Assembly: GCA_902826025.1 (NCBI GenBank)
Contig: CADEDH010000011.1
Span: 7,247-71,246 of the forward strand
DNA: 64,000 nucleotides
Direction of reading: 5' to 3'
Source of the DNA: an uncultured Actinomycetes bacterium
Lineage (GTDB): Bacteria > Actinomycetota > Acidimicrobiia > Acidimicrobiales > SZUA-35
The notes below the pieces were generated by a model. It was not told where the DNA came from, ran no database searches, and was given only the letters and a program-made list of their open reading frames with translations. This document shows, in pieces, positions 18,983 through 52,914 of the stretch. Position 1 is the first letter of the stretch. The number at the start of each line of letters is the position of its first letter. The position numbers and the translations under genes were made by a program.

Positions 18983-20218
18983 CTAGAAGGGGTCCTGAGG
19001 CTCGCCCAGTGCGAAGCGGCCCACACGGAGGTGCACCCGGTCGCGGTGGGCGTTGATGTGCACCGGCATCGCCTGGAAGTCTCGGAAGCGCCGCTCCAGG
19101 GTGCCGCCCTCCCGCAGGCCGTTGCCGCCGGCCGAGCGCTGGATGAGCCGCATGGCCTCGTCGAGCTGGTCGAGGGCTGAGGTGGACAGCGCCATCTGAC
19201 GCAGGTAGTCGGCCTCGGTGGGCACCAAGCCGGCGGCGATACGGTCGTCGACCTGACGGCAACCGGTCTCGGCGGTGGCCGCCGCCGACGCCACCAGGGC
19301 CGCCGCCTGGCCCAGGTTGAGCTGGACCGGGGGCAGCGTGGTCATCGTCCGGCCCAGGATGGCCTTGCGCCCCAGGATCTGGTCCACCGCCTCGGTGAGC
19401 GCCGCCCGCACCAGGCCCACGCCCATCCAGGCCAGCCACAGGTCCGACAGGCCCACCCAGTCCTCTCGATAACGGGGGGCCACCACCGGGACCTCCCGCA
19501 GGGCCTCGGCCCGGTTGGCCCCGTACCAGGCCACGCACCGCCCGACCTCCAGCTCGGTGCCGGTGTAGAACATGTCGTCGGTGGCCGATGCCCGCACGGC
19601 CGAGCCGTCCCAGGTGGGGTCGATCTTGATCGTGGGGTCGTCGAGCCGGGCCACGCTCATCCGCAGATCGAGCGGCTGGACGCGGTTGCCCTCGCCGTCG
19701 ACCACCACGAAGGCAACGCCGGTCCAGTCGGCGTAGCGGCCGCCCGAGCCGAACGAGCCCCGCCCGTTGAGCCGTACCCGGTCGCCCTCGATCACCCCCG
19801 TCACGCCGGTGCCGGCCCCGCCGGGAAAGCACACGGTCTCACCGGCGGCCACCATGCCGGCCAAGCGGTCGGCCTGGTCGGGTCCCAGGCACCCGACCAC
19901 CAGGTGGAACACGCAGAGGTGGTTCCACATCACCCAGGCCGTGGAGGTGCAGGCGGCCGAGATGGCCTCCAGCTCCCGACCGATCTGGAGCATCGAGGCC
20001 TCGAGACCGCCGATGTTGGCCGACGCCGAAAGCCGCACCACGTCGCTCGCCTTGAGCGCCGCTATCACCTCGGGGCTGACCGAGCGGGTGCGGTCGGCCT
20101 CCGCCGCCTGGGCGGCGATGACCGGCACGATCGGGTCGACCACGAGCGACGGCCGGGGTCCGAGCAACTCGTCGAGGGCGGCGAGGGAATCGACGGGAAC
20201 GACAGGAGCGCTGGCCAT
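18983..20218 (-). CDS. acyl-CoA dehydrogenase-like flavin-dependent monooxygenase
   Basis: The 411-residue protein has the acyl-CoA dehydrogenase fold of the two-component flavin monooxygenase group (HsaA/DszC-like). Marks are an N-terminal helical domain with AAEADRTRSVSPEVIAAL, the STAWVMWNHLCVFHLV segment, GSFGSGGRYADWTGVAFVV in the beta domain, and a C-terminal helical domain with RLIQRSAGGNGLREGGTLERRFRDFQAMPVHI, which is the usual DRxxR-G-hydrophobic arrangement. The substrate is not evident. The usual catalytic Glu of true dehydrogenases is not seen. The ATG at 20218 is preferred to the in-frame extension from 20287. A 45-nt palindromic repeat lies just upstream. Confidence 0.75.
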   Translation of the reverse strand: MASAPVVPVDSLAALDELLGPRPSLVVDPIVPVIAAQAAEADRTRSVSPEVIAALKASDVVRLSASANIGGLEASMLQIGRELEAISAACTSTAWVMWNHLCVFHLVVGCLGPDQADRLAGMVAAGETVCFPGGAGTGVTGVIEGDRVRLNGRGSFGSGGRYADWTGVAFVVVDGEGNRVQPLDLRMSVARLDDPTIKIDPTWDGSAVRASATDDMFYTGTELEVGRCVAWYGANRAEALREVPVVAPRYREDWVGLSDLWLAWMGVGLVRAALTEAVDQILGRKAILGRTMTTLPPVQLNLGQAAALVASAAATAETGCRQVDDRIAAGLVPTEADYLRQMALSTSALDQLDEAMRLIQRSAGGNGLREGGTLERRFRDFQAMPVHINAHRDRVHLRVGRFALGEPQDPF

Positions 20219-20273
20219 GGCCCGCAGTCTCCCACCAGCCCGATCGGCCGGCCACCCAGAACCCATCGTCGAT

Positions 20274-20318
20274 CTCTGACACGCCAACCCGCTGGGCGGT
20301 ACCTGCGGTCAGAGTTCG
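20274..20318 (+). repeat. dispersed palindromic element, copy A
   Basis: CTCTGACACG - 12 nt - GCGGTACC - 3 nt - GGTCAGAGTTCG. The outer CTCTGAC and GTCAGAG are inverted. The same four blocks with the same spacings occur at 34198-34244 on the other strand, with unrelated bases in the 12-nt middle. Confidence 0.75.
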
Positions 20319-20332
20319 GTGGTGGGACGGGC

Positions 20333-21142
20333 TCAGCTGATCTGGGAGCGGCCCCGCTCGACGATGCCCCGGCGCCGGGCCTCCACCTCCTCGGGTGAGA
20401 ACCGCACGTCGCGCCGAAAGGCCCGGGCCCCTTCGGTCTCCAGGCGCCAAGCGTCGGCCAGCCGGGCGTCCTCCTGGGAGGCGTAGGTGGCGAGCATGCG
20501 CCGCACGCCCACCTGGTCGTTGGCGGCGATGTCGGCTGCGATCCGGCGCACCGTGGGCAGCAACTCGTCATGGGGCACCACTCGGTTCACGAGCCCCCAG
20601 GCCAGCGCCTCAGCAGCCGAAACGAAGTTGCCCGACAGGGAGATCTCCCGGGCCCGCCGGGATCCGACGGCGTCGCCCAGCAGGGCCGACAGGCCCCAGC
20701 CCGGCATCACGCCCACCCGGGCGTGGGTGTCGGCGAAGGCCGCCCTCTCCGAGGCGATCAGGAAGTCGCAGTTCAGGGCGAGCTCGAAGCCGCCCGTGAT
20801 GGCGGGGCCGTTGACCGCTCCGATCAGCGGCTTGCTGCGAGCCGGGAAGGGCGAGGTGCTGCCCGACCCCTCGGGGCTGGGCCCCTCGAGCTGCTGGCGC
20901 CCGGCGCCGAGCTCCTTGAGGTCGAGGCCGGCACAGAAAGCGGGATCGGAGCCGGTGAGGATCATGACCGAGACGGCGTCGTCGGATTCCAGCTGCTCCA
21001 GGGCGGCCCACAGCTGGCGGCGCAGGGCGCCGTTGATGGCGTTGCGGATCTGGGGGCGGTGGAGGGTGACGGTGGCGATCCCGTCGGCCACGTCCACCAG
21101 CACCACCTGCTCGTCGTGCTGCTCACCGGTTGCGTCGGCCAC
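20333..21142 (-). CDS. enoyl-CoA hydratase/isomerase family protein
   Basis: A 269-residue crotonase-fold enzyme acting on acyl-CoA thioesters. The oxyanion-hole segments are DPAFCAGLDLKEL and AVNGPAITGGFELALNCDFLIAS. The Glu in GGFELAL fits the first catalytic glutamate, but the second position (ARVGVMPGWG) has no Glu, so simple hydratase activity is uncertain. Start is GTG 21142 with AAGGAGG five bases upstream; an in-frame ATG at 21241 lacks such a site. It lies upstream of the monooxygenase gene in the same direction, 114 bp apart, consistent with a small acyl-CoA degradation group. Confidence 0.85.
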   Translation of the reverse strand: MADATGEQHDEQVVLVDVADGIATVTLHRPQIRNAINGALRRQLWAALEQLESDDAVSVMILTGSDPAFCAGLDLKELGAGRQQLEGPSPEGSGSTSPFPARSKPLIGAVNGPAITGGFELALNCDFLIASERAAFADTHARVGVMPGWGLSALLGDAVGSRRAREISLSGNFVSAAEALAWGLVNRVVPHDELLPTVRRIAADIAANDQVGVRRMLATYASQEDARLADAWRLETEGARAFRRDVRFSPEEVEARRRGIVERGRSQIS

Positions 21143-21267
21143 CACTGCCTCCTTGGCTGGTTCGATTCGGCCCGATCGTAGGCCGGCGACATCGGCGAGG
21201 GCCCGTTCGCCCCACCCAACCGGATCCCCGGAGCTCACCATTCCACTAGGTTGCGATCCTCTCTATA

Positions 21268-21296
21268 TTGCTTTTCTATCTAGTCAGGTTTACGAT
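21268..21296 (+). promoter_or_regulatory. promoter of the PadR gene (leaderless)
   Basis: TTGCTT (21268-21273) and TACGAT (21291-21296) are 17 bp apart in an island of AT-rich DNA. The GTG start codon follows 6 nt after the -10 box, so the transcript probably begins at the start codon. Confidence 0.65.
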
Positions 21297-21302
21297 CTAG
21301 CC

Positions 21303-21731
21303 GTGACCTCCCGACGCCAACCGGAAGAGACCGACGGGCGCCGGGCCCAGTGGCTCAAGGGCGTACTCGAGCCCTGCCTGCTCGGCGTACTGGCACCAGG
21401 GGAGGCCTACGGCTACGAGATCGCCCAGCAGCTGCAACGGGCCGGGCTGGGCGAGGTGAAGGGCGGCACGCTCTACCCCCGCCTCAGCGCCATGGAAACC
21501 GCCGGCCTCGTGGAGGTCGAATGGCGAGCGGGCGACAGCGGCCCCGGCCGCAAGTACTACCGCCTCACCCCGGCCGGCCGGGTGGCCCAGCAGGAGGCGG
21601 CGGCCGACTTCCGCCGCTTCGCCGCCGTGACCCTGGCCCTCATCGAGGGCACTCCCGTGCCCCCACCCCCACCCCCCACCGGCCCCCCTCTGGCCGTTGA
21701 CCCCGTGAACCGGGAGGAGATCCGGCGATGA
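21303..21731 (+). CDS. PadR-family transcriptional regulator
   Basis: A 142-residue winged-helix repressor. Family marks are LEPCLLGVLAPGEAYGYEIAQQL, the recognition segment GEVKGGTLYPRLSAMETAGLV and the wing GRKYYRLTPAGR. Members often repress an adjacent transporter or membrane-protein gene, and here the next gene overlaps by 4 nt (ATGA). The C-terminal tail is Pro-rich (a run of prolines near residue 120) and probably disordered. No Shine-Dalgarno precedes the GTG; the promoter just upstream predicts leaderless translation. Confidence 0.92.
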   Translation: MTSRRQPEETDGRRAQWLKGVLEPCLLGVLAPGEAYGYEIAQQLQRAGLGEVKGGTLYPRLSAMETAGLVEVEWRAGDSGPGRKYYRLTPAGRVAQQEAAADFRRFAAVTLALIEGTPVPPPPPPTGPPLAVDPVNREEIRR

Positions 21732-22435
21732 AGCGCACCAGCGACCGGCAGCCGACTGCCGACGCCCACCACCCGGCCGAGCGGGACGTCGAGCGCTACC
21801 TCGGCGCCGTGGCCGAGCACCTGGCCGTGCTGGGCATGCCGCCCGACCGTAGCGGCCAGCACCTGGCCGAAATGGCGGCCCACCTACGCGACTCGGAAGC
21901 TGATCCGTGGGCGGAGTACGGCACCCCCGAGCGGTACGCCCGTTCGCTGGCCGAAGCCGACGGCCGCCCGATGCGGCCCCTGGGCCTCCGGGCGCTGGCC
22001 GCCGGGGTGGGGGCCGCTGCCCTGGCTATCGGGTTCATCCTGCTGGTCCGGGGCGGGCGGCCCACCGAGCTGCACTGGGCTTCGATCGTGTCGGTGGTGC
22101 CGTTCGCCGCCATCGCCGGCTGCTCGGCCACCGTGTGGGGGGCCAGGATGCGCGACACCCAGCTGCCCGGCTCGCCCGACCGGGACCGCTCGGCCCGCCT
22201 CGTGCTGAGCTGGGCCGGTGCCGCCGCCGTGCTGGCCGCCGTGGTCAGCGGCGTGGCCAACGCCCTCCTGGGCGAGCGCCGCTCGGTGTGGCCCGATGTC
22301 CCGTCGTGGGTCACGGGCCTGGCCCTGCTGGCGGTGGGCGCGGCGGCCGCCGCCGTGGCCAGCCGCCGGCCCCGGTTCCCCTCCGGCTCCGGACTGCAGG
22401 GCTCCTGGTTCGCCCGCCGGATCCGCCTCCGCTGA
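21728..22435 (+). CDS. PadR-coupled membrane protein (HAAS-like N-terminus)
   Basis: A 235-residue protein with an N-terminal soluble helical part (RDVERYLGAVAEHLAVLGMPPDRSGQHLAEMAAHL ... WAEYGTPERYARSLAEA) and four predicted membrane segments from about residue 90. The soluble part looks like HAAS-type domains, which commonly follow PadR genes and are thought to be their signalling partners. Its ATG overlaps the padR stop, so the two are cotranslated. The last residues are basic (FARRIRLR), likely cytoplasmic. No enzyme motif is seen. Confidence 0.7.
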   Translation: MKRTSDRQPTADAHHPAERDVERYLGAVAEHLAVLGMPPDRSGQHLAEMAAHLRDSEADPWAEYGTPERYARSLAEADGRPMRPLGLRALAAGVGAAALAIGFILLVRGGRPTELHWASIVSVVPFAAIAGCSATVWGARMRDTQLPGSPDRDRSARLVLSWAGAAAVLAAVVSGVANALLGERRSVWPDVPSWVTGLALLAVGAAAAAVASRRPRFPSGSGLQGSWFARRIRLR

Positions 22436-22438
22436 CTC

Positions 22439-23332
22439 TCAGCGGGGGTTGAGGGTGCCGAGGAGCTCGATCGTCTCCAGCGCCTCGCTCTGGTCGTTGG
22501 TCATGCAACGGACGATCACGTCGTCGTAGCCCAGGTCCACCAGGGGCTGGAGTTGGGCGGCGGCGTCGTCGCGATCACCCACGATCAGCTGGTGCATCTG
22601 CAGGCCCCGATAGCCCCGCTCCACCATCGCCGCGGCCCGGGACCGGGCCCGGTCGCCGTCGTCGAGCACCAGCACGTCACGGCGCACGATGGCCCGGGGC
22701 GTGGTCCCGGCCCGGCCACACTCGGCCCGGTAGCCGGCCAGGAGCCGTTCCGACTCCCCCGTGGTGGCACCGGGCCCGGCGTACCAGGCGGTGCCGACGG
22801 TGGCGGCCCGGCGCAGCGTGGCTTCGGCGTGGCCTCCGATCCACCACTCCACCGGCTGGGTGGGCCGCAGCCCGAGGGTGGCCGGTGCCATTCCCAGCCG
22901 CTCACTAGCCACCGTGTCGCCCGCCAGCAGCGCCTGGACCACACGGATGATCTCGTCGGTGTCGACCCCCCGGGTCCGCAGGCTGGCCCCCATGGTGGCG
23001 AACTGGGCCGCGCCCGACCCGATCCCGGTCTGCACGATGAACGGAGCGTCGACCATGGCCGCCAGCGTGCCCACCTGCTCGGCCACCAACATCGGATGCC
23101 ACAGGGGCAGGAGGAACAGGCAGCCCGCGGGGCGATCGGGCCAGTGGGCCAGGAGGCGGCCCAAGGTCGGCGTGTTCTGCATGTACCACCGGTTCTCGGC
23201 GTGGTGGTCGCCCACACTGAGCGACGACAACCCGGCGGCGTAGGCCGCCGCGGCCCGCTCCACCATCCACCGGGCCACCTGGGCCGGGGTGTCGGCCACC
23301 AGCGACGACGACAGGGAGATCCCGATCCGCAC
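22439..23332 (-). CDS. LLM-class flavin-dependent (probably F420) oxidoreductase
   Basis: A 297-residue luciferase-like monooxygenase-fold protein. Marks are RIGISLSSSL at the N-terminus, LSVGDHHAENRWY, the strand VQTGIGSGAAQF, and WWIGGHAEATLRRAATVGTAWYAGPG near the cofactor site. The actinobacterial setting favours F420 as cofactor, but FMN cannot be excluded. The GTG at 23332 begins 4 nt after the EthD gene stop, so the two are coupled; the longer frame from 23485 would overlap that gene. It converges on the PadR-partner gene with 3 bp between stops. Confidence 0.8.
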   Translation of the reverse strand: MRIGISLSSSLVADTPAQVARWMVERAAAAYAAGLSSLSVGDHHAENRWYMQNTPTLGRLLAHWPDRPAGCLFLLPLWHPMLVAEQVGTLAAMVDAPFIVQTGIGSGAAQFATMGASLRTRGVDTDEIIRVVQALLAGDTVASERLGMAPATLGLRPTQPVEWWIGGHAEATLRRAATVGTAWYAGPGATTGESERLLAGYRAECGRAGTTPRAIVRRDVLVLDDGDRARSRAAAMVERGYRGLQMHQLIVGDRDDAAAQLQPLVDLGYDDVIVRCMTNDQSEALETIELLGTLNPR

Positions 23333-23336
23333 CGGC

Positions 23337-24008
23337 TCAGACGATCCGGATCTCGTCGACCACCACGAACGGCAGCCGGCCCGTGTCGAGGAAGTTGGCC
23401 TCGTCGGCCCGGGTGGCGGCCAGCTCGGGCGAGGCAGCGGCCGCCCGAGCGGCGTCCAGGCTGGCCAGGTAGGCCACGGCCACACCGTCGTGGATCGGTT
23501 GGCGCCCGTCGCGGTAGGCCCGGGCCGGCACGTGGTTCTGCACGTAGCGCACCATGCCCGGCACCCTGGCCCCCAGCGGGCCGTGGTTGTCCCACCAGTG
23601 GGCGTGGGCCTGCTCAGGGCTGAGGTCGGGCCGGCGGGTGAGCCAGGTCAGCTGTTTGATCGCCTCGGGCCCCGGTGTGCCGTCGACAACGACCTTCTCC
23701 TCCACTACCAGGCTGTGGCGGCGGTCGGGGTCGATGAAGTGGCCCTCGTCGGCCATCACGGCGTCGAGGGCGGCGGTTCCCCGGTGGGCCTGGAGGGCGT
23801 CCAGGTCATCCCACCAGGTCTCGGCCACGCCGTCGGCGTAGGGCTGACGACCCTTGGCGTAGCCGGCGTCGGTGACGTGGTTCTGGTTGTAGGCCCGCAG
23901 GCCGGGCAGGTTCAGCACCACCTTGGGGTGCTCGTGGCGCCAGTAGGTCCGGAACTCCTCGACGGTGAGCCCGGGCTTGCGGGTGAACCAGGTGAGAACC
24001 TTGATCAT
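23337..24008 (-). CDS. tandem EthD-domain protein
   Basis: The 223-residue product has two consecutive EthD-type ferredoxin-like (dimeric alpha/beta barrel) domains, roughly residues 1-110 and 115-223. Each half carries the pattern LTWxTRKPxLxxEExxxxW and NHVxxxxYxxGRQPxxDGVA, so it arose by internal duplication. EthD proteins act in ether or lipid degradation gene groups but their reaction is unclear. Upstream TAGTTT sits 6 nt before the ATG, and there is no Shine-Dalgarno. It is coupled to the downstream LLM gene. Confidence 0.82.
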   Translation of the reverse strand: MIKVLTWFTRKPGLTVEEFRTYWRHEHPKVVLNLPGLRAYNQNHVTDAGYAKGRQPYADGVAETWWDDLDALQAHRGTAALDAVMADEGHFIDPDRRHSLVVEEKVVVDGTPGPEAIKQLTWLTRRPDLSPEQAHAHWWDNHGPLGARVPGMVRYVQNHVPARAYRDGRQPIHDGVAVAYLASLDAARAAAASPELAATRADEANFLDTGRLPFVVVDEIRIV

Positions 24009-24053
24009 GTCCCGAAACTAGGAGCTGGGCCACCGATCCGGTAGCCGAGGCTC

Positions 24054-25028
24054 CTACTTTCGGGCCGCGTCCTCGGTGGGGACCAACACCGCCGGGTCGA
24101 CGGGGGCGGCGAATGGATGGTCGGGGGTGTCGACCGCGGGCACGAAGGCGGCGAACAGTCGGGCCCAGATGGCGTCGACATCGAGGGCGGCGGCCAGGGG
24201 CAACCCGGTCAGCAGCCGCTCGGGCAGCTGGGACAGGGTGGTCAGGTGGACCCCCCGCACCTTCATCCCACCGGAGCGGATCTCCTGGGGCAGGGTGAGG
24301 CGGTCTTCCAGCACGATCACGCCCTGCACCGGGGCCGGCTCCACCAGACCGGCCACCGCCGCCACTTTCTCCAGCACCTCGTCGAGCATCGGGTCGACAG
24401 TGCGCTCGGCGCCCCGCCCGGTGTACACCTCATGTTCGTCGAGTGACAGCTTGGCTGTCCGCACCGCCGGGTCGATCACGTACACCCCCCGGGGAGCGAC
24501 GGCCAGGTGGGCGATGGTGAGCCCGTCGGCGGCCAGCCGGCGGATGTCGTGCCATACCTGGATGCCCTCGACGGCGTCGATGGCGGCCCGCACCTCGGTG
24601 TCGAACTGCCCCTGGAGGGCATGGGCCATGGCGGCCCGCAGCGACTCCATGGACCGGGCCTCGGCTGAGTTGCGCGGGGTCAGCCGGGTGGCACCGGCGA
24701 TGGCGGTGGCCGAGATGTGGGCCAGCCCGCCGGGCTCGGGGGCCGACTCCCGGTCGGCCGTGGCCAGCACCCGGGCCGCCATGCGGGCTTCGAGGGCCTC
24801 GGTGATCGGGTCGAGCGGGCCGCTGACACGACGGGCGACAGCGGGGCCGGGCCGGGCCGCCACCAGGCCGACCCGGCCCCCGCCCAAGCGACGGGCCGGC
24901 GAGGGCTCGTGACCGTTCTCGTCCCCCTCCAGCGGCAGGTACTGGCGCTGGGACCGCACGAGGACCCAGGCCAGGAAGCAGATCGAGGCCAGCAGCACGA
25001 ACGTGAGCGTGAGCGTCCACGATGGCAT
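24054..25028 (-). CDS. membrane-anchored protein with NERD-like domain
   Basis: The 324-residue product begins with one membrane segment (WTLTLTFVLLASICFLAWVLV) and is otherwise soluble. Between about residues 150 and 270 it has VEGIQVWHDIRRLAADGLTIAHLAVAPRGVYVID, then VQGVIVLEDRLTLP and VRGVHLTTLSQLPERLL. This is close to the NERD nuclease-related pattern (HL-V-P-GV-VID, then a strand and a second strand pair), but the Lys of the nuclease motif after VID is not in the usual place, so nuclease activity is doubtful. The ATG at 25028 has GGAGGTGACGCA upstream. Confidence 0.6.
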   Translation of the reverse strand: MPSWTLTLTFVLLASICFLAWVLVRSQRQYLPLEGDENGHEPSPARRLGGGRVGLVAARPGPAVARRVSGPLDPITEALEARMAARVLATADRESAPEPGGLAHISATAIAGATRLTPRNSAEARSMESLRAAMAHALQGQFDTEVRAAIDAVEGIQVWHDIRRLAADGLTIAHLAVAPRGVYVIDPAVRTAKLSLDEHEVYTGRGAERTVDPMLDEVLEKVAAVAGLVEPAPVQGVIVLEDRLTLPQEIRSGGMKVRGVHLTTLSQLPERLLTGLPLAAALDVDAIWARLFAAFVPAVDTPDHPFAAPVDPAVLVPTEDAARK

Positions 25029-25173
25029 TGCGTCACCTCCACGAGCTGGCCGGCTGCACACCGTCGGTGATGGCCTACACCTCGAACCATAGTCCCGGGG
25101 TGTCCCAGGGGGAAGCTTGGCCCTTGGTGCTGTGGCCCGCGTTTTCCTGTATGCCCTGGTCACAGGAACTGGG

Positions 25174-27426
25174 TCAAGCGCCACCAATCGCGATCGTCTC
25201 GGTCGACACCGCTACCGCAGCCACCGCTGAGGGTGAGTACGCCATCGGCAGCAGCTCGCAGGCCAGCCAGGCCTCCCGCTGGTCGAGGTCATAGCCACTC
25301 CCCCGCACTCCGCTCACACCGTGGGGAACCACCCAGCCCGAAGCGTCCCAGTCGCCCAGGTCGAAGGCGTAGCGGGCCACGGACGAGGAGGCCGACCGGT
25401 CGCCGGTGTGGGGCATGACCGTGCCGGCCCGCACCGTGTCGCCGTCGCCCCCGCACGGGTCGACCGGCGGGTGCAGGTGAGCCACCTCGGGACGAACCGA
25501 GGCCAGCGGATGGGGTGACAACATGGTGTGGGCCGCCCCCCAGGCCCAGCCGGCGGGATCAGGCCCGTACTGCTCGGCCAGCTCGGCCGCTGCCTGGTCG
25601 AACAGCCGGCCGAGCACTGCGGCCGGTTGGCCGTCGGCCCCCATGCCGGGGACCATGTTGGCCGCCGTGCGCAGCAGCACCCCGGCCCCGTCGAACAGCA
25701 TGCGGGAGGCGATGATGGCCGGGGGCCAGGCCGGCCCGCCCAGGCGGGCGCCGCCGATGCCGAGTTGACGGCCCACCTCGTCGGCCCACAGGCGCTTGAC
25801 CGTGCCGAACACGAGGGCGGCGGTCGAATCGGCCCGCACCTCGCAGTCCCACCCGTGGAGCAGGTCGTGAGCGGCCCGCCCCTCGGCCGTGCGGGGCTCG
25901 GCCCGGCTCAGCGTCTCGAGCACGGCCGGGGCCCGCAGCGAACGGACGTCGCCGTGGATCGCCGGCATGTCAGCCACGGTGGCCGCCTCCAGGCCGTACA
26001 GCAGCTGCACGATCCGGTCGTGGCGGGCCGGGCCGGCGAAGTCGAGCGAGATGTAGGGGCCTGAGTCGCCGGTCCGGTTGTTCGCCGTTACCAGGAACCC
26101 CCGCTCCGGATTGCGCCAGGCGTGGAGCCGGTCGAACGGCACCGGCTCCAGCCCGTCCCAACCGTGGTCGTCGTTCCCGGGCACCGGCGTCCACCGGTTG
26201 GCCACCGGGCGCTCCACCACGTGGCCCCGGAGATGGAACGAGATGTCGCCGCCGATGTCCGCTGTGAGCAGGTTGTTCACCGGCAGGGCCCAGGCCGCCT
26301 GGGTGCGTTCGAACTCGTCGACCGAGCGGGCTTCCAGCATCGGCCACAGGCTGTCGAACGTGGTGTCGGGGGCGAAGATCCCCGTCCACATCATCGACAG
26401 CACCGGTCGGCCGTCGCCGGCCCCCGGATCGCCCAGGATCACGGGGCCTCGGCCGGTGCTGGCGATGGGCACCGCCACCGGATCGGCCCCGTGGACGTCG
26501 ATCATCTCGGTGCGGATCACCGCAACCGGCTCCCGCTCCACGAACACGTCGGTGTCGTCGGCCATCCCGTGCGTGATGGCCCATGCCACCCCGTCGTTGT
26601 GCCCGAAGTGGGGGAAGCCGGGCACACCGGGGAAGGCCAGGCCGATCACGTCGAACGCGTCGCACGTGAGATGGCACTGGTGGTAGGCATTGGGGAACTC
26701 GATGCCCCGGTGCGGGTCGCCGGCCAGGATCGGGCGGCCCGACGCCGTGCGCGATCCATGGATGGCCCACGAGTTCGAGCCGCCCTCCTGGCCGGCCAGT
26801 CCGCGGGCCAGATCGGCCAGCTCGGCGGCGGCTCCGTCCATCACCGCCACGGCATCCTGGAGCAGGTCGATGGCGGGGCCGCCGCCCGCCGGCGTCATGG
26901 CCGACGCCGCCCCGGGCGACCCGACCATCAGCCGGGCCACCTCGGGCCCGGCGGCCACCGTCACCGCCCCCCGCCACAGCTTGCGGTGCAGGGTGCCCAT
27001 GAAGATGTGGCGCACCTTGTAGACGGCCACGCACTGCCACGGCTCCCACGGCTCGGGTGGCGTGGGGTGGCAGTCGAACTCCGCCGGCAGGTCGCCCCCG
27101 TTGGCCGCCAGCCAGGCGTTGATGCCCCCCACGTAGGCCTCGGTCATCGCCTTGGCCCGATCGGTCAGCCCGTCGTAGTGGGCCCGGGACACGGCCGCCA
27201 GCTCGATGCGACGGAACAGCGAGTCTTCCGCCACTGCCGCCTGCCCGGCCACACTGGCCCATCGGCCCTGGGCCCGCAGGCGATCCCATTCCATCTGCCA
27301 CAGCCGGTCGGCGGCAGCCAGCCAGCCCTGGGCCCAGAAGGCGTCGAGGGGGTCGGCCGTGCGCACATGGCCGATCCCCCACCGGTCCCGGGTGATGGTG
27401 GCGGTGCGATCCTCGGGGCTCGTCAT
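25174..27426 (-). CDS. penicillin acylase family (Ntn) amidohydrolase, apparently cytoplasmic
   Basis: The 750-residue protein matches the S45 penicillin/acyl-homoserine-lactone acylase family, which self-cleaves to expose a Ser nucleophile. The cleavage site is Gly216-Ser217 in GQEGGSNSWAIHG, followed by GRPILAGDPH and FPNAYHQ. The N-terminal chain carries ITRDRWGIGHVRTADPLDAFWAQGWLAAADRLWQME. Unlike the secreted family members, no signal peptide is present: the protein starts directly with the enzyme. Substrate unknown; amides of fatty or aromatic acids are possible. The ATG at 27426 follows TACAGT by 8 nt, so a leaderless mRNA is likely. Confidence 0.9.
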   Translation of the reverse strand: MTSPEDRTATITRDRWGIGHVRTADPLDAFWAQGWLAAADRLWQMEWDRLRAQGRWASVAGQAAVAEDSLFRRIELAAVSRAHYDGLTDRAKAMTEAYVGGINAWLAANGGDLPAEFDCHPTPPEPWEPWQCVAVYKVRHIFMGTLHRKLWRGAVTVAAGPEVARLMVGSPGAASAMTPAGGGPAIDLLQDAVAVMDGAAAELADLARGLAGQEGGSNSWAIHGSRTASGRPILAGDPHRGIEFPNAYHQCHLTCDAFDVIGLAFPGVPGFPHFGHNDGVAWAITHGMADDTDVFVEREPVAVIRTEMIDVHGADPVAVPIASTGRGPVILGDPGAGDGRPVLSMMWTGIFAPDTTFDSLWPMLEARSVDEFERTQAAWALPVNNLLTADIGGDISFHLRGHVVERPVANRWTPVPGNDDHGWDGLEPVPFDRLHAWRNPERGFLVTANNRTGDSGPYISLDFAGPARHDRIVQLLYGLEAATVADMPAIHGDVRSLRAPAVLETLSRAEPRTAEGRAAHDLLHGWDCEVRADSTAALVFGTVKRLWADEVGRQLGIGGARLGGPAWPPAIIASRMLFDGAGVLLRTAANMVPGMGADGQPAAVLGRLFDQAAAELAEQYGPDPAGWAWGAAHTMLSPHPLASVRPEVAHLHPPVDPCGGDGDTVRAGTVMPHTGDRSASSSVARYAFDLGDWDASGWVVPHGVSGVRGSGYDLDQREAWLACELLPMAYSPSAVAAVAVSTETIAIGGA

Positions 27427-27450
27427 GGCCGCGAACTGTACCGGCGCTCG

Positions 27451-27490
27451 CCGGCCCGGTGCCCGACCGGCCCGGTGCCCGACCGGCCCG
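27451..27490. repeat. 16-bp tandem repeat, 2.5 copies
   Basis: CCGGCCCGGTGCCCGA occurs twice in full and once as its first eight bases. It lies in the gap between the divergent acylase and antiporter genes. Confidence 0.8.
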
Positions 27491-27553
27491 GGGTCGTGCG
27501 CCTCCGGGCCAGGGGGAATGCCTGCCCTACCCCACCGCTGACCTGCCCGCTAT

Positions 27554-27571
27554 CGTTGCATCCCTGCAACG
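27554..27571. promoter_or_regulatory. inverted repeat, possible operator upstream of antiporter operon
   Basis: CGTTGCA-TCCC-TGCAACG is perfect over 7 bp per arm and overlaps a -10-like TATCGT (27551-27556), about 36 bp before the antiporter start. It could be an operator or a leader hairpin. Confidence 0.45.
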
Positions 27572-27606
27572 CACGGGCGGCCAGTAGGCCTAGGGAGGGA
27601 TCGAGG

Positions 27607-29829
27607 GTGATCGGGCTGTTGGCTGCGGGCAGCCTGAGCGAACACGTGATCCCGCGCGTCTTCGTGGCCATCGCCGTGGTGATCGTGGTGGCCCGGGTGA
27701 TGGGAGCGGTCGCCCGCAAGCTGCGCCAGCCACCGGTGGTGGGCGAGATCATCGGCGGCATCGCCCTGGGGCCGACCCTGGTGGGAGCGCTCCCCGGCGG
27801 AATCGACGAGCTCCTGTTCCCCACCGACATCCGCCCCTCGCTCACGGTGATCGCCAACCTGGGCCTGATCATCTTCATGTTCATCGTGGGCCTCGAGCTC
27901 GACACCACACTGATCCGGGGCAAGGAGCGGATCGCCGGGGTCATCTCGCTGTCGTCGATCGTCCTGCCCATGGCCATGGGCCTGGGGCTGTCGATCCTGC
28001 TCTACGACCGCTACGCCGGCCCCGGCAGCGGCGACGGCATCGGCGCCCTGCCGTTCGGCTTGTTCATCGGCTCGGCCATGTCGATCACGGCGTTCCCGGT
28101 GCTGGCCAGGATCCTGGTTGACCGCGGCATGTACCGCACCGCACTGGGCTCCCTCGTGCTGGCCTGCGCCGCTGTCGATGACATCCTGGCCTGGGCCCTC
28201 TTGGCCGTGGTGCTGGCCGTGGTGGAGACCGGCACCTTCCTGTCATGGGACTTCCCCCGCATCCTGGGGTTCTCGATGCTGTTCGGGGCGGTGATGTTCG
28301 GCGTCGTCCGGCCCTTGCTGGCCCGGTTGGTGCCGGCCTACGAGCGGCTGGGCCGGCTCACCCCCAACCTGGCCTCGGTGGTGCTGATCGGGTTCCTGCT
28401 GTCGTCGTTCGTCACGGCCGAGATCGGCATCCACCACATCCTCGGCGCCTTCGTGTTCGGGGCGGTGATGCCCCGAGAGGGGGCTCACGGGTTGACGCTC
28501 GAGATCCTGGAGAAGCTGGAGCAGGTCAGCGTGCTGCTGCTGCTCCCCGTGTTCTTCGTGACCACCGGCCTCAACGTCGACATCGGGGCCCTCGACGGCG
28601 CCGCCTTCGGCGCCCTGGTGCTGGTGCTGGCGGTGGCCATCGCCGGCAAGTTCGTGGGCGCCACCGCCGCCGCCCGCCTCCAGGGCATCGGGCCCCGACG
28701 GGCTGCCGCCATCGGCACCCTGATGAACACCCGAGGTCTCACCGAGTTGATCGTGCTCACCGTCGGCCGGGAGAACGGGGTGCTGAACGACACCCTGTTC
28801 ACGATCATGGTGGTGATGGCCGTGGTGACCACGGTGATAACCGAGCCCGGCCTGCGCCTGTTCTATCCCGACGCCCTGCTGGCCCGCGACATCGCCGAGG
28901 CCGAGCGGGCGGCCCGGGGCGGGCAGGAGGCGTACCGGGTGGTGGTGCTGGTGGACGACCCCTCCGCCGGGGCTCTGGCGGCCCGGGTGGCGGCCGGCCT
29001 GGCCCGGGCCGAGGAGCCGGCCGAGGTGGTGCTGGCCCGCTTCGTGCCCCCGGGCCCCGCCCCCGAGCTGGGGGCCGGGCTCAGCGCCCAGCTGCTGGAG
29101 ATGACAGGGGCCATGGAGGCCATGGCCGCCGTCGAGCGGGAGGTGGCGGCGGCCGGCGTCGCCTGCGACGTGGTGACCCGGTTCGCCGATCGCGCCGGAG
29201 CCGGGACCGACGCCGACCTCGCCTCCCGCCTGTCGTCGCTCACCCCCGACCTCGTGTTGCTGATGACGGCTCCCGCCGACGCTGACCGGGTGGCCCGCAC
29301 CACCGAAGCCATCGTGGGGGTGGTCACCCCCGCTGCCGCCGGCGGGTCCGGCGCCGATCCGGTGGCGGGGCCGGTGGCGGTGGTGGTCGACGACGGGCCG
29401 GCCGCCGGTCGCCTGGTCGACCTGGCCCTGCGCCTGGCGGCCGATCATCCCCGCCCGCTCCAACTGCAGGCCGGCGGCCGGATGGCCCGCCGCCTGGGCC
29501 GGTTCACCGAGCTGGTCCGGCCCGACGGGACGCCGCTGGCCGTACTGGTCGACGAAGACGCCGGCCCGGCAGGAGCCGCCCTGGTGGTGGGCTCCCCGGC
29601 GGGGATCGGCGCAGCGGGCGACCGGGCGGCCCGGCTGGCGCTGTCGGTCCCCACCGCCGCCACGGTCGAGCTGGACGACGTCCTCGACGGCTGGGCCCGC
29701 CGCCTGCGATCCGACCGCCGATCCGACCGCGAGGAAGGCGCCGGTGACGACTTGGGGGCCGCCGCCGACGCCGCCCTCGAAACCGTCAACCACTCCTCAC
29801 CGACCCCCCAACCGGAGCCGAAGGCCTAG
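27607..29829 (+). CDS. CPA2-family cation:proton antiporter with C-terminal Usp-like region
   Basis: The 740-residue protein has 12-13 membrane segments in its first 430 residues, with QPPVVGEIIGGIALGPTLVGAL, FMFIVGLELDTTLIRG, SMSITAFPVLARILVDRG and NTRGLTELIVLTVGRENGVL, the standard KefB/NapA-type signature. The remaining 300 residues are soluble, Ala/Gly/Asp-rich, and look like one or two degenerate universal-stress-protein-type domains (VVLVDDPSAGALAARVAAGL; VAVVVDDGPAAGRL), likely a cytoplasmic regulator. The GTG at 27607 has GGAGGG 8 nt upstream. A 6-nt gap to the next antiporter gene indicates an operon. The transported ion is not known. Confidence 0.88.
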   Translation: MIGLLAAGSLSEHVIPRVFVAIAVVIVVARVMGAVARKLRQPPVVGEIIGGIALGPTLVGALPGGIDELLFPTDIRPSLTVIANLGLIIFMFIVGLELDTTLIRGKERIAGVISLSSIVLPMAMGLGLSILLYDRYAGPGSGDGIGALPFGLFIGSAMSITAFPVLARILVDRGMYRTALGSLVLACAAVDDILAWALLAVVLAVVETGTFLSWDFPRILGFSMLFGAVMFGVVRPLLARLVPAYERLGRLTPNLASVVLIGFLLSSFVTAEIGIHHILGAFVFGAVMPREGAHGLTLEILEKLEQVSVLLLLPVFFVTTGLNVDIGALDGAAFGALVLVLAVAIAGKFVGATAAARLQGIGPRRAAAIGTLMNTRGLTELIVLTVGRENGVLNDTLFTIMVVMAVVTTVITEPGLRLFYPDALLARDIAEAERAARGGQEAYRVVVLVDDPSAGALAARVAAGLARAEEPAEVVLARFVPPGPAPELGAGLSAQLLEMTGAMEAMAAVEREVAAAGVACDVVTRFADRAGAGTDADLASRLSSLTPDLVLLMTAPADADRVARTTEAIVGVVTPAAAGGSGADPVAGPVAVVVDDGPAAGRLVDLALRLAADHPRPLQLQAGGRMARRLGRFTELVRPDGTPLAVLVDEDAGPAGAALVVGSPAGIGAAGDRAARLALSVPTAATVELDDVLDGWARRLRSDRRSDREEGAGDDLGAAADAALETVNHSSPTPQPEPKA

Positions 29830-29835
29830 CCAACC

Positions 29836-31227
29836 ATGATCCAGGGACTCAAGCCCGACTTCGTCGCCGCCTTCGTGCTGGCCGATATCGCCATCATCCT
29901 GCTGGCCGCCCGCCTGGTCGGCGGCCTGGCGCTCAAACTGGGCCAACCCCGAGTGGTGGGCGAGATCGTGGCCGGTGTGCTGCTCGGGCCGTCCGTGCTC
30001 GGCCCGTTCTGGTTCACCTGGGGCAACGCCCCGTCGTTCCTCCACTGCGACGTGTCCCGGGCGGCGTTGGCCGTTGGGGCCGACCCGGCCACGGCCAAGA
30101 TCCCACCCCCCAGCATCACCCAGTGCCTGTTTCCCACCCAGGCCCGCGGGGTGCTGTCGATTGTGGGGTCGATCGCCCTCATCTTCTTCATGCTGCTGGT
30201 GGGGGCCGAGCTCGACCTGAGCGGCCTGGCCACCCGGCTCAAGGGCGTGCTGGCGTTGGCCCTCGGCGTGGTGGCGGCACCCCTGGTGGGCGGCCTGGCC
30301 ATCGGCCCCCTGCTGCACAACGCCAAGTTCGCCCTGCCCGGGGTCGACGGTGTGCTCCCCGACCGCCTCGGCTTCTCGCTGTTCGTCGCCGCCCTGCTGG
30401 CCGTGACTGCCTTCCCCGTGATGGCCCGCATCCTGCAGGAGAAGAACCTCATCACCTCCGACATGGGCGTCATCGGGGTGTCGGCAGCGGCCGTGGTGAC
30501 CGTGGCCATGTTCCTCCTCACCGCCGTGGCCCGGGGGGTGGCGTCGAACGCGTCCACCGGGAGCCTGGTGAAGGTGTTCGTGGGCGCCGCCATCTACCTG
30601 CTGGTGATGGCCATCCCGGTACGGCTGGTGCTGGGCCGCACGATCGGTACCGCCATCGAGGCCCGGGGGGCCATCACCGGCACCGAGTTGGCGGTCGTGG
30701 CCATGGTCGCCCTCGGCTCGGCCTACGCCGCCGACCGCATCGGGATCCACGTGATCGTGGGTGGATTCGTGGCCGGGGCGGTGCTGCCGGCCCGGGGCGT
30801 CATCCACCGGGAGCTGGCGGCCCGCCTGGCCGATGTGACCAACGTGATCCTCCTGCCGATCTTCCTGGCCTTCTCCGGCCTGCGCACCGACTTCACCACG
30901 CTCCGGACCCAGCACGTCGGGGGGTTGGTGCTGGTGCTGGCGGTGGGGATCCTCACCAAGTGGGCGGCCGGCGCCGTCTCCGCTCGGGTGGGGGGTCTCT
31001 CGTGGAACGAGGGCTTGGTGCTCGGCGCCCTCATGAACTGTCGGGGCCTGCTGGTGCTGGTGGTGGGCATCCTGGCCGTGGACTCGGGCATCTTCACCCC
31101 CCAGATGCAGCTGGCCGGGGTGGTGATGGCCCTGGTCACGACGGCCATGACGGGTCCGCTGGTCGACCGGTCGATCGCCAAGCTCGGTGCTCCCGCCCCG
31201 GAGCCGGCCCGGGTGGGAGCGGCGTGA
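29836..31227 (+). CDS. second CPA2-family cation:proton antiporter
   Basis: A 463-residue antiporter lacking the long cytoplasmic domain of its neighbour. It shows LGQPRVVGEIVAGVLLGPSVLGP, FFMLLVGAELDLSGL, FPVMARILQEKNL and NCRGLLVLVVGILAVDSGI. A polar loop of about 50 residues with two Cys (FLHCDV and TQCLF) lies between the first and second membrane-segment groups and could be extracellular and disulfide-bonded. It is 6 nt after the first antiporter and overlaps the kinase gene start by 4 nt. Two antiporters side by side could form a heteromer or handle different ions. Confidence 0.88.
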   Translation: MIQGLKPDFVAAFVLADIAIILLAARLVGGLALKLGQPRVVGEIVAGVLLGPSVLGPFWFTWGNAPSFLHCDVSRAALAVGADPATAKIPPPSITQCLFPTQARGVLSIVGSIALIFFMLLVGAELDLSGLATRLKGVLALALGVVAAPLVGGLAIGPLLHNAKFALPGVDGVLPDRLGFSLFVAALLAVTAFPVMARILQEKNLITSDMGVIGVSAAAVVTVAMFLLTAVARGVASNASTGSLVKVFVGAAIYLLVMAIPVRLVLGRTIGTAIEARGAITGTELAVVAMVALGSAYAADRIGIHVIVGGFVAGAVLPARGVIHRELAARLADVTNVILLPIFLAFSGLRTDFTTLRTQHVGGLVLVLAVGILTKWAAGAVSARVGGLSWNEGLVLGALMNCRGLLVLVVGILAVDSGIFTPQMQLAGVVMALVTTAMTGPLVDRSIAKLGAPAPEPARVGAA

Positions 31228-32045
31228 GCGGCAGCGGGGCCAACGACCTGGCCGGCATCGCCGACTACCAGTTCGAGGCCGCCCTGGGCCAGGCCAACCA
31301 CGGCCACTTCTACCTCGCCCCGCCGCCGGCCCGGCTGGGGCTGACCGACCGGTACGTGACGGTGAAGGTGGTGGACGGGTCGACCCCGGCCGACACCTTC
31401 CGGCGGGCCACCCGGGAGCTGAAGGCGTTCGCCGTGGTGATCTGCCCTCAGCTCGTGACCATCCACGACGCCGGCCAGGACGGCGACCGGTTCTACTACG
31501 CCATGGAGCACGCCGAGCTGGGCTCGCTGGGCCGGCCGGCGGCCCGGGCATTCACCCGGGCCGAGGTACTGGGGGCAGTGGCCGACGCCGCCCTGGCCGC
31601 CGACGCCCTGCACCGGGCCGGAATGGCCCACCGCGACATCCAGCCCAACAACGTCTGGCTCTACCCCGAAGGCGGCAAGCTGGCCGACCTGGGCCTGGCC
31701 CAGGTGCTGGAGCGGTCGACCGTCACCGGGCTAGGCCACATCGGGGCAGTGGAGTTCATGGACCCCGACATCATCCAGGGCCAGCCGGCGTCACCCGCCA
31801 CCGACATCTGGGCGCTCGGCGCCACCCTGCACTGGGCCCTGGCCGGCGGCCTCGGGTTGTACGGGGCGCTGCCCGCCGACGAGCCCCTGCTCGCCATCCG
31901 CACCGTGCTGGCCCAGCCAGCCGCCGTGGCGACCACCGTCCACCCCGTCGACCGGGACGTCATCGAGCGGTGCCTGGCTCCCGCCGGGCAGCGGTTCGCC
32001 TCCGCCGCCGAGCTGTCGGCCGCCGTCCGCTCCCTGCCGCTCTAG
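31224..32045 (+). CDS. atypical protein-kinase-fold protein coupled to antiporters
   Basis: The 273-residue product has a kinase fold: Lys48 in VTVKVV, alphaC Glu65 in RELKAF, catalytic loop HRDIQPNN (136-143) and DLG (155-157) in place of DFG. The active-site Asp138, Asn143 and Asp155 are kept, but the catalytic-loop Lys is Gln140, the Gly-rich loop is degenerate (LGQANHGHFYLA) and the APE motif reads MDPD. It may be a weak kinase or a pseudokinase. No membrane segment is present. Its GTG overlaps the antiporter stop (GTGA), so it is made together with both antiporters and may control them; that role is inference. Confidence 0.75.
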   Translation: MSGSGANDLAGIADYQFEAALGQANHGHFYLAPPPARLGLTDRYVTVKVVDGSTPADTFRRATRELKAFAVVICPQLVTIHDAGQDGDRFYYAMEHAELGSLGRPAARAFTRAEVLGAVADAALAADALHRAGMAHRDIQPNNVWLYPEGGKLADLGLAQVLERSTVTGLGHIGAVEFMDPDIIQGQPASPATDIWALGATLHWALAGGLGLYGALPADEPLLAIRTVLAQPAAVATTVHPVDRDVIERCLAPAGQRFASAAELSAAVRSLPL

Positions 32046-32082
32046 CTCCCCGCCCCCGACCCGACCCGCCCCGCCCCGCCCG

Positions 32083-32198
32083 GCGAACTGCGCGACGGAT
32101 TACGCGACACGCCGCCGTTCTGAGTCGCGAACTCTACGAAATCCGTAGACAACGCGACGCAGAACCGTGGCGGGGCGCGTTTTCGTCGCGCAGTTCGC
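32083..32198. repeat. 116-nt nested palindrome between convergent genes
   Basis: GCGAACTGCGCGACG (32083-32097) and CGTCGCGCAGTTCGC (32184-32198) are perfect 15-bp arms. Inside, GTTCTGAGTCGCG faces CGCGACGCAGAAC with one mismatch, and TCTACG-AAATC-CGTAGA forms the tip. The whole can fold as one long, partly interrupted hairpin or cruciform. It is placed between the kinase-like gene stop and the LLM gene stop. Confidence 0.85.
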
Positions 32199-32214
32199 GC
32201 AGTTGACCGCGCGG

Positions 32215-33288
32215 TCAGCGGGTAGGCGCCGGTGGCTGGCGGAGCTCGGAAAGGATGTGGGCCAGGGTCTCGGCGTCGCCGGGGGTGTTCACCGGGATGG
32301 AGAACTCGATCCGGTGGACCCGGCGGCCGTAGCGGCGCTGGAGCTCAGCCCCGATCCGGTCGTGGGTGGCCACGGTGGCCACCGTGTGGAGCATCTCGTC
32401 GGTCACCAGACCCGGCAGGTCGTCCCACCGCTTGGCCCGGGAGAGCTGCGAAGCCTGCTCGGCGATGTCGGTCCACCCGTGGATGGCGAAGGCCCGACGG
32501 TACGACGGAGTGGACAGGTAGAAGGCCACCCGCTCCCTCACCGTGCGGGTCACCCGCTCCAGCGTCGCCTCGTCGGGGGCCGTGCCGATCAGCGGCTTCA
32601 TGCAGATCTCGACCGTGTCGGGGTCCTTGCCCACCCGGGCCGCCCCCTTGGCCACCGCCGGCATGATCTCGTCGTCGATGAAGCGGGGGGTGACAACCGG
32701 GTGGAGGCGCACCCCGTCGGCCACCTCGGCCGCCACGGCGCACATGTTGGGCCCGATGGCGGCGATATGGACCGGGATCCGGGGGTGCTCGATCGGCCCC
32801 GGGTCGAACAGGGGGACCATCAGATCGAGGTTGTAGTGCTCGGAGCTGAACCGGAGCGGCGTGCGATGCTGCCAGGCATCCCACACGGCCCGCATGGCCA
32901 GCACGTAGTCCCGCATCCAGGGGGCGGGGGCGTGCCACGGCAGGCCGAAGCGACGTTCCATGTGCGCCCGGACCTGCGAGCCGAGGCCGAGCACGAACCG
33001 TCCGCCCGACAGCTTCTGCAACGACCAGGCCGACATGGCGGTGACCGTGGGGCTGCGGGGAAAGGCCATGGCCACCGAAGTGCCGAGCCCGATGCGCGAT
33101 GTGGTGGAGGCGCCCAGGGCCAGCAGCTGGAACGGGTCGTCCTTGGTCTCCTCCACCAGCACGGCGTCGAGGCCGAGCTCCTCGGCCTTGGCCGCCAGGG
33201 AGGCGAAGTCGGTGATGCGGAGCGGAGTCTCGGGCTCCCGCAGGCCCGGATCGAGCTTGCCCAGCGGGAGCAGCGTCTCCACCAGCAT
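32215..33288 (-). CDS. LLM-class F420-dependent oxidoreductase
   Basis: A 357-residue luciferase-fold protein with LAAKAEELGLDAVLVEETKDDPFQLLALGASTTSRIGLGTSVA and SLQKLSGGRFVLGLGSQVRAHMERRFG, the pattern of actinobacterial TIGR03617-like F420 enzymes, and IPVHIAAIGPNMCAVAAEVADGVRLHP near the cofactor phosphate site. Substrate unknown. The ATG at 33288 has GGAGGTGTGACG upstream and directly follows the sulfurtransferase stop, so the two genes are coupled. The longer in-frame start overlaps that gene and is rejected. Confidence 0.85.
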   Translation of the reverse strand: MLVETLLPLGKLDPGLREPETPLRITDFASLAAKAEELGLDAVLVEETKDDPFQLLALGASTTSRIGLGTSVAMAFPRSPTVTAMSAWSLQKLSGGRFVLGLGSQVRAHMERRFGLPWHAPAPWMRDYVLAMRAVWDAWQHRTPLRFSSEHYNLDLMVPLFDPGPIEHPRIPVHIAAIGPNMCAVAAEVADGVRLHPVVTPRFIDDEIMPAVAKGAARVGKDPDTVEICMKPLIGTAPDEATLERVTRTVRERVAFYLSTPSYRRAFAIHGWTDIAEQASQLSRAKRWDDLPGLVTDEMLHTVATVATHDRIGAELQRRYGRRVHRIEFSIPVNTPGDAETLAHILSELRQPPAPTR

Positions 33289-33290
33289 CG

Positions 33291-34169
33291 TCACACCTCC
33301 AGGGGAAGGCCGGCAGCCACCCATTCGCTGAGCGAGCCGTCGTAGATGCCGAGGTCGCTGTGGCCCAGGCGGTGGAGGATGAAGGCGTCACTGGTGGCGG
33401 CGATCCCGCCCCCGCACCAGGTCACGATGCGCCCGCCGGTGACACCGGCCGCCTCGAACGTGGCCCGCAGCTCGTCGAGCGGCTTGTAGCGGTGGGTCTC
33501 GGGGTCGACCAGCCCGGCGGCGTAGACGTTGGTGGAGCCGGGGATGTGGCCGGCCCGACCGTAGGAGGCGTCGGCCCCCGAGTGCAGCTCCGGCGACAGG
33601 GCGTTGACCAGGCACACCTTGTCGTCGGTGGTGGCCGCCTCCACCTCGGCCCGGCCCACGATGGCTTCGGGCCGGGTTTGGACGCTCAGGGATGCCGTCG
33701 GATGCTCGGGGGCGGGATCGGTGCTCAGCTCCCGCCCGTCGCTCTTCCACGCCCGCAGGCCGCCGTCGAGCACGGCAGCGTCGTCGAACCCGATCGAGCG
33801 CAGCAGCCACCACACCCGGGTGGCCCACATGTTCACGGCCCGGTCGTAGAGCACCACCCGGGTGCCCTCGCCGATGCCGCGGGCGGCGAAGGCGGCGGCC
33901 AGGCGATCGGCGCTGAGGGCGGTGAAGCGAAGTTGGCTGTCGGGGTCGGACAGCTCCGCCACCAGGTCGATGAACCCGCTGCCGGGGATGTGGCCCTCGG
34001 CCCACGACTCCCGGCCCGACTCCACCACGTACGGACCGCCGGCGGTGCTCGCACCCTCCGGTGGACGGCGGAGGAACACGGTGCAGTCGAACAGGCGAAG
34101 GTCGCCGGCCTCGGCGGCCAGCTCGCCCGCCAGCCAGTCGGTGGACACGAGTGGTTCGATGGCGCTCAT
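33291..34169 (-). CDS. thiosulfate/3-mercaptopyruvate sulfurtransferase
   Basis: A 292-residue two-domain rhodanese that transfers sulfane sulfur. The N-terminal domain contains GHIPGSGFIDL and VVLYDRAVNMWATRVWWLLRSIGF; the C-terminal domain has GRAGHIPGSTNVYA and the active-site loop WCGGGIAATSDAF, whose Cys is the sulfur carrier (family consensus CGSGVTA). The loop composition does not cleanly separate thiosulfate from mercaptopyruvate specificity. The ATG at 34169 follows TACGGT by 8 nt with no Shine-Dalgarno, indicating a leaderless mRNA. The downstream LLM gene begins 2 nt after the stop. Confidence 0.9.
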   Translation of the reverse strand: MSAIEPLVSTDWLAGELAAEAGDLRLFDCTVFLRRPPEGASTAGGPYVVESGRESWAEGHIPGSGFIDLVAELSDPDSQLRFTALSADRLAAAFAARGIGEGTRVVLYDRAVNMWATRVWWLLRSIGFDDAAVLDGGLRAWKSDGRELSTDPAPEHPTASLSVQTRPEAIVGRAEVEAATTDDKVCLVNALSPELHSGADASYGRAGHIPGSTNVYAAGLVDPETHRYKPLDELRATFEAAGVTGGRIVTWCGGGIAATSDAFILHRLGHSDLGIYDGSLSEWVAAGLPLEV

Positions 34170-34197
34170 GGGCGCCGACCGTAGCCCAACCACTGGC

Positions 34198-34244
34198 GAA
34201 CTCTGACCTCCGGTACCGCTTCGGCGCCTCCCGTGTCAGAGTTC
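34198..34244 (-). repeat. dispersed palindromic element, copy B
   Basis: On the minus strand it reads GAACTCTGACACG - 12 nt - GCGGTACC - 3 nt - GGTCAGAGTTC. The outer arms GAACTCTGAC/GTCAGAGTTC are a perfect 10-bp inverted repeat. It matches copy A at 20274 block by block, and lies between divergent genes. Confidence 0.75.
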
Positions 34245-52902: not shown

Positions 52903-52914
52903 ACCCCCCGAAAA

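What the first reader, a model, noticed from the sequence alone, without database searches (positions are those of the whole stretch)
20274..34244. Two copies of a 45-nt palindromic element with conserved frame and variable middle
At 20274-20318 (+) and 34198-34244 (-): CTCTGACACG-N12-GCGGTACC-N3-GGTCAGAGTTCG. All blocks and spacings match, while the 12-nt middle differs. Two intergenic copies 14 kb apart suggest a shared operator, a small non-autonomous hairpin element, or a structured RNA.
Basis: seen in the sequence. Interest (0 to 1): 0.6.

Follow-up and report, generated by a model that had tools for sequence, protein, structure and literature searches.

The report
Fixed-length DNA palindromes at gene ends
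The two matching palindromes belong to a pair of sister repeat families, about 130 copies of exactly 47 base pairs, that sit mostly just behind the stop codons of genes in this one bacterial genome and look like docking sites for an unknown DNA-binding protein rather than folded RNA.

Summary
Both copies belong to family F1, GAWCTCTGAC-N27-GTCAGAGWTC (53 places with perfect 7-bp arms, about 62 in all, in a 6.87-Mb draft genome). A sister family F2 (GAWCTGTGGC-N27-GCCACAGWTC, about 70 copies) has the same 10-27-10 geometry. A shared pattern counts 130 here and none in 98 relatives. Copies sit mainly -9 to +30 nt from a stop codon, between convergent or tandem genes; window copy 2 is a divergent exception. 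Arms are almost invariant, the interior is free within limits, the 27-bp gap is fixed. The halves do not covary, and F2's invariant core is unpaired and shows no preferred strand, so a structured RNA is unlikely. All nine close pairs are spaced 61, 71 or 72 bp: one spacing, or one helical turn less. I read the element as a double-stranded DNA site for an unidentified dimeric protein with two DNA contacts per subunit, spread by copying like REP elements but with no Y1/RAYT transposase found. A gene-end boundary role is inferred, not shown.

The parts
20271..20317 (+). F1 copy 1: GATCTCTGAC-N27-GTCAGAGTTC; lies 15 nt from the stop of the enoyl-CoA hydratase-like gene 20333-21145 (-) and 52 nt upstream of the start of the acyl-CoA dehydrogenase-like gene 18983-20218 (-)
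34198..34244 (+). F1 copy 2: GAACTCTGAC-N27-GTCAGAGTTC; between divergent genes, 28 nt from the start of the rhodanese-like gene 33291-34169 (-) and 25 nt from the start of the amidohydrolase gene 34270-35649 (+); an exception to the usual gene-end position
20271..20280 (+). left arm of copy 1 (GAWCTCTGAC)
20308..20317 (-). right arm of copy 1, the same 10-mer on the other strand
34198..34207 (+). left arm of copy 2
34235..34244 (-). right arm of copy 2

Best explanation
SHOWN: the two window copies belong to F1, one of two sister families (F1 about 62, F2 about 70 copies) of exactly 47-bp dyad sites that mostly mark the 3' ends of genes in this genome and are essentially absent elsewhere. Each half is a near-invariant 10-bp arm, a relaxed linker of about 5 bp and an inner core; spacing never varies, and C-rich, G-poor flanks are symmetric about the dyad. 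INFERRED (about 0.75): the site is read as double-stranded DNA by a protein dimer whose subunits touch arm and core, and neighbouring complexes cooperate on one face of the helix. INFERRED (about 0.35): the complex acts as a gene-end boundary, a bidirectional roadblock that stops or pauses RNA polymerase, or a topological insulator between transcription units. INFERRED: the sites spread within this lineage by copying, as REP elements do, and are then kept by selection on arms and core.
For: 53 exact arm pairs and 59 with at most one mismatch genome-wide, reversed-pattern control 0. 130 copies of the shared pattern here, 0 in 98 relatives; in 394 other genomes of the class, 3 with one match each. 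Gap 27 in 52 of 59 arm pairs found in 371 kb; the other 7 each carry two mismatches. 8 of 1026 F1 arm letters are off consensus, while interiors agree on average at only 13.7 of 27 positions. 110 of 111 F1 arms in 449 kb have a partner at exactly +37. No covariation. Position 0 of the two arms: A/A 34, T/A 11, A/T 7, T/T 5 of 57. F2 core CGCGCA...CAGC invariant but unpaired; in the tandem rows F2 lies in either orientation to the transcript. 45 of 52 F1 rows and 28 of 32 F2 rows, duplicate loci included, lie -9 to +30 nt from a stop codon. All 9 close pairs have spacing 61, 71 or 72. Flank bias is equal on both sides of tandem copies.
Against: No protein partner was identified. Window copy 2 and a few others lie between divergent genes (5 of 61 rows, two of them one place doubled around a run of N). 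About 130 copies serve only a small share of genes, and neighbours show no common function. REP elements also cluster behind genes, so location alone does not prove a host role. The two 61-bp pairs look like tandem duplications (C12 near-identical interiors, C93 identical 47-mers), which weakens the phasing argument to seven pairs at 71-72 bp. Excess of highly similar interiors (12 pairs at 21 or more matches against 1.35 simulated) shows that some copies share descent.
Confidence: 0.4

Rival explanations
1. Selfish REP-like or MITE-like palindrome families, moved in trans by an unrecognised transposase that binds the arms; gene-end position reflects tolerance of insertion, not function.
For: Species-restricted multicopy family; location between convergent and tandem genes and stop codons supplied by the element (about 12 rows) match what PMC3733652 reports for REPs. 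Three identical F2 47-mers at two places. Several sister palindromes coexist.
Against: No PF01797 Y1 transposase in this genome or its congener. No target-site duplication. No graveyard: few copies with decayed arms although interiors are scrambled. Close pairs are fixed at 61/71/72 bp, which mobility does not predict.
Confidence: 0.3
2. Chromosome-architecture site (nucleoid occlusion, condensin or segregation loading, or gyrase binding), placed in gene ends only because that space is free.
For: Dispersed dyad DNA site with tens of copies, symmetric, phase-locked pairs; gyrase binding of BIME-2 repeats is reported in PMC2817692.
Against: Distances to stop codons are tight. Contigs carry uneven numbers. 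Chromosomal order is unknown in this draft.
Confidence: 0.15
3. A structured RNA or intrinsic terminator hairpin in the 3' UTR.
For: Arms can pair; copies fold better than shuffles (mean z -4.5 for 24 convergent copies, against -2.0 for 30 convergent gaps without one). Position behind stop codons.
Against: No covariation, independent A/T position in F1, no T-run or terminator-like site at either window copy, invariant unpaired F2 core, no Rfam hit, fixed length.
Confidence: 0.08
4. Operator of a transcription factor controlling a regulon.
For: Window copy 2 lies in a 100-bp divergent promoter region.
Against: Few divergent copies (5 of 61 rows; 1 of 36) although divergent gaps offer 9952 of 28597 placeable bases. 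Neighbouring genes have diverse functions.
Confidence: 0.05

Closest known systems
REP elements / BIMEs / REPINs (GTAG and CGTC superfamilies, PMC3733652, PMC2817692)
   Same: Many dispersed palindromic copies in one species, several families per genome, between convergent and tandem genes, often overlapping stop codons; protein-binding and termination roles have been proposed for them.
   Different: 47 bp with an invariant 27-bp gap instead of 20-40 bp stem-loops; no GTAG or CGTC foot at one end; pairs are direct repeats at 61/71/72 bp, not opposite-facing dimers; no Y1/RAYT gene found; halves do not covary.
[quoted passage not shown]
   Same: Short, repeated, with inverted terminal arms, no coding capacity.
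   Different: No target-site duplication; shorter than typical MITEs (recalled); no autonomous parent found, though that was not searched; almost no decayed copies.
Dispersed dyad binding sites of chromosome-wide proteins (Noc, SlmA, ParB sites; recalled)
   Same: Dispersed dyad dsDNA sites, tens per chromosome for Noc and SlmA (recalled).
   Different: Those sites are about 12-16 bp (recalled); here 47 bp with symmetric flank bias, and tied to gene 3' ends.
Inverted pairs of DNA uptake sequences acting as terminators in Neisseria (recalled)
   Same: Inverted 10-mers behind genes.
   Different: Single arms are almost absent here (1 of 111 in 449 kb); the gap is fixed at 27.

Membership tests
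REP (GTAG/CGTC) elements | multicopy extragenic palindrome, mostly downstream of genes | tested here: met
REP (GTAG/CGTC) elements | unpaired GTAG or CGTC motif at one end | tested here: not met
   Ends are GAWC/GWTC on both sides; flank profile shows C at -4 in 74% of F1 half-sites but no tetranucleotide foot
REP (GTAG/CGTC) elements | RAYT (Y1) transposase in the genome (GTAG type; CGTC type reported to lack a dedicated transposase) | tested here: not met
   PF01797: 0 matches in 2 of 2 genomes searched, control positive in 5 of 14 known genomes
REP (GTAG/CGTC) elements | 20-40 bp stem-loop with complementary stem changes | tested here: not met
   47 bp; no covariation
MITE | target-site duplication | tested here: not met
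   No clear excess of direct repeats of 2-12 nt at the ends of 55 F1 copies (3 nt: 5 against 2.8 expected; 4 nt and longer: 0)
MITE | autonomous parent element with the same ends | not tested
Intrinsic terminator | G+C-rich hairpin followed by a T-run | tested here: not met
   0 terminator-like sites at both window copies; tested at these two copies only
Structured RNA family | covarying stems or match to a known family | tested here: not met
Protein-bound dsDNA dyad site | independent half-sites of one motif, fixed spacing, no strand preference | tested here: met
Protein-bound dsDNA dyad site | physical binding of a protein | not testable with these tools
   needs pull-down, EMSA or ChIP

The most novel reading that the evidence does not exclude
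A lineage-specific bacterial gene-end boundary system: a two-domain dimeric protein with two related site specificities (F1, F2) sits on about 130 sites just behind stop codons, cooperates over a fixed 71-72 bp or one helical turn less, and works as a dedicated bidirectional roadblock or insulator for RNA polymerase, its sites having spread through the genome by copying.
Probability: 0.25. Interest if true: 0.8.

Novelty: new variant of a known kind. Interest (0 to 1): 0.5.

Why it matters
Repeated palindromes behind bacterial genes are usually read as hairpins moved by RAYT transposases. Here the geometry, the lack of covariation and the phase-locked pairs point to double-stranded DNA recognition. 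If a protein is found, it would give a testable case of sequence-specific marking of gene ends in bacteria, and a natural set of about 130 sites in two specificities to study how such sites spread and are kept.

Tried and rejected
Hairpin RNA: rejected. Within-half hairpins: the strongest within-half couplings are between near positions (9-10, 10-11, 18-20, 13-18, 13-14, 10-12), not the pairs a hairpin in GGTNCC would need. REP/RAYT: PF01797 absent. Insertion with target duplication: none clear. Complementary flanks (a target hairpin split by the element): duplex energy of left and right flanks equals re-paired flanks, p 0.42. Regulon: 24 distinct proteins (20 gene-end neighbours of F1 copies and four genes around the window copies) have diverse or no family hits. 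Orthologous site in the congener G001: its contig ends before the intergenic region. Comparable families in G001 (146 kb), G032 (104 kb), G007 (217 kb) and 46 loci of named relatives (374 kb): none by repeated-arm count, but the samples are small. Exact F1 pattern: 0 in genome contigs and viral contigs (both may leave out the own genome); F2: 0 in viral contigs, and no hit of one F2 copy in plasmids or phages. Literature: palindrome/REP/Acidimicrobiia, arm-sequence, phasing and roadblock searches (listings only) showed nothing matching; 15 of the 200 papers found were listed, all unrelated; this does not prove it is unpublished. Of papers, I saw the abstract and passages of PMC3733652 and passages of PMC2817692. 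Gene calls are from my own simple codon-usage caller, not a standard program, so some starts and 'genic' labels are doubtful.

Full report
WHAT WAS CHECKED. Reading the flanks shows that the unit is 47 bp, GAWCTCTGAC-N27-GTCAGAGWTC, at 20271-20317 and 34198-34244.

GENOME-WIDE FAMILY. The window lies in a 6.87-Mb draft of 162 contigs. Named relatives of a window protein are mostly Acidimicrobiia MAGs, so the host is very probably of that class. The arms CTCTGAC-N27-GTCAGAG occur 53 times exactly and 59 times with at most one mismatch; the reversed control gives none. A sequence model from 51 copies finds about 58 strong places and a few weaker ones, then falls to noise. In 371 kb around the copies, 52 of 59 arm pairs with up to two mismatches have gap 27; the other 7 have two mismatches each. 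In 449 kb, 110 of 111 F1 arms have a partner at exactly +37.

SISTER FAMILY. Folding convergent gaps that lack F1 revealed GATCTGTGGC-N27-GCCACAGATC. A directional pattern finds 70 places; 69 form F2, and one (C82:18534) is a hybrid with an F1 left arm and an F2 core and right arm. The shared pattern GAWCTSTGRC-N27-GYCASAGWTC with one mismatch counts 130 here and 0 in 98 relatives. In a class-wide draw of 395 genomes, 3 of the 394 others have one match each. The looser F1 pattern with three mismatches gives 63 here and 20 matches in 17 of 98 relatives, dissimilar inside; the reversed control matches once each in 6 of them, so these look like chance.

ANATOMY. F1 arms carry 8 off-consensus letters of 1026, while interiors agree on average at only 13.7 of 27 positions. 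Half-sites read arm, then a relaxed stretch of about five positions (R-Y-S-V-S), then an inner core (G/A)T(V)CCG. F2 has the same layout with an invariant core CGCGCA(R)AAT(N)CAGC. Flanks are C-rich and G-poor reading inward, with C at -4 in 74% of F1 half-sites. The bias is the same on the stop side and the far side of 21 tandem copies, so it belongs to the site and not only to the 3' UTR; after other stop codons C and G differ much less.

NOT A FOLDED RNA. Interior pairs match in 356 of 741 cases against 342.6 (sd 12.5) when halves are re-dealt, p 0.15; 57 of 61 rows were used, leaving out three weak or other-armed copies and one bordering N. An independent count gives 73.1% paired against 73.8% shuffled and a covariation score of 0.111 against 0.118. 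The A/T position varies in each F1 arm on its own (34, 11, 7, 5 of 57); in F2 it pairs 40 times of 69 against 34.4 expected, a small excess that I report against my reading. Positions 19 and 20 next to the centre pair somewhat more than expected in F1 (z 2.9 and 1.9), and the RNA form does fold well. F2's core is invariant but opposes C to C, G to G, C to A and A to C. In the tandem rows F2 lies in both orientations relative to the transcript. No Rfam family, no T-run at the two window copies.

PLACE. Of 61 F1 rows, 27 are between convergent genes, 22 tandem, 5 divergent, 5 inside my gene calls and 2 at contig ends. Excluding three weak or other-armed copies, 45 of 52 rows with a neighbouring gene end lie -9 to +30 nt from it; in about 12 rows the TGA inside the arm is the gene's stop codon. 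F2 behaves alike: 16 convergent, 16 tandem, 1 divergent, 1 genic, 2 open among 36 rows, which include four repeats of the same place (30 of 70 F2 loci were examined, with neighbours). Window copy 1 follows the rule; window copy 2 is a divergent exception. Neighbours are varied metabolic genes.

PAIRS. Among 132 F1 and F2 places the nine close pairs are spaced 61 (2), 71 or 72 bp (7), in both families; the C37 pair at 155 bp flanks a run of N and is dropped as a likely assembly artefact. The 61-bp pairs are probably tandem duplications, as C93 has identical and C12 near-identical interiors. A simple uniform null gives p below 1e-5 for all nine, without correction for such descent. Two spacings one helical turn apart suggest protein complexes that meet on one face of the helix; this is inference.

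INTERPRETATION. 130 sites of this information content (about 52 bits for F1 against a 72% GC background) in one genome and none in relatives call for spread by copying. Arms kept while interiors are scrambled, with few decayed copies, call for selection on the site as bound DNA. The protein is unknown and the role at gene ends is inferred. REP elements are the nearest known kind, sharing location and stop-codon overlap (PMC3733652), but the foot motif, the Y1 transposase, the length and the covariation tests are not met, so I do not file it as a REP.

Noticed in passing
window 32076-32214: Composite inverted repeat between convergent genes; similar GCGACGA / TTCTGCGCGAC pieces recur at L080:5877-6048 and L052:4132-4293, perhaps another repeat family.
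   Followed up: no
window 52898-52972: Long near-perfect palindrome filling a 65-bp convergent gap, folding z -9.8.
   Followed up: no
window 63569-63611: 20-bp-arm palindrome between convergent genes, folding z -7.3.
   Followed up: no
L084:6030-6076 and L056:3086-3146: A further palindrome family with arms like AATTAGGAGCCTGAGCC, also in intergenic space.
   Followed up: no
L087:4001-4047 (G000 C22:57699): Intermediate arm GATCTGTGAC-N27-GTCACAGATC between F1 and F2.
   Followed up: partly
L054:2883-3084 (G000 C37): The same F1 copy appears on both sides of a run of N, a likely scaffolding duplicate.
   Followed up: partly
L041:3959-3968: A lone F1 arm 39 bp before the C12 doublet, the only unpaired F1 arm in 449 kb.
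   Followed up: no
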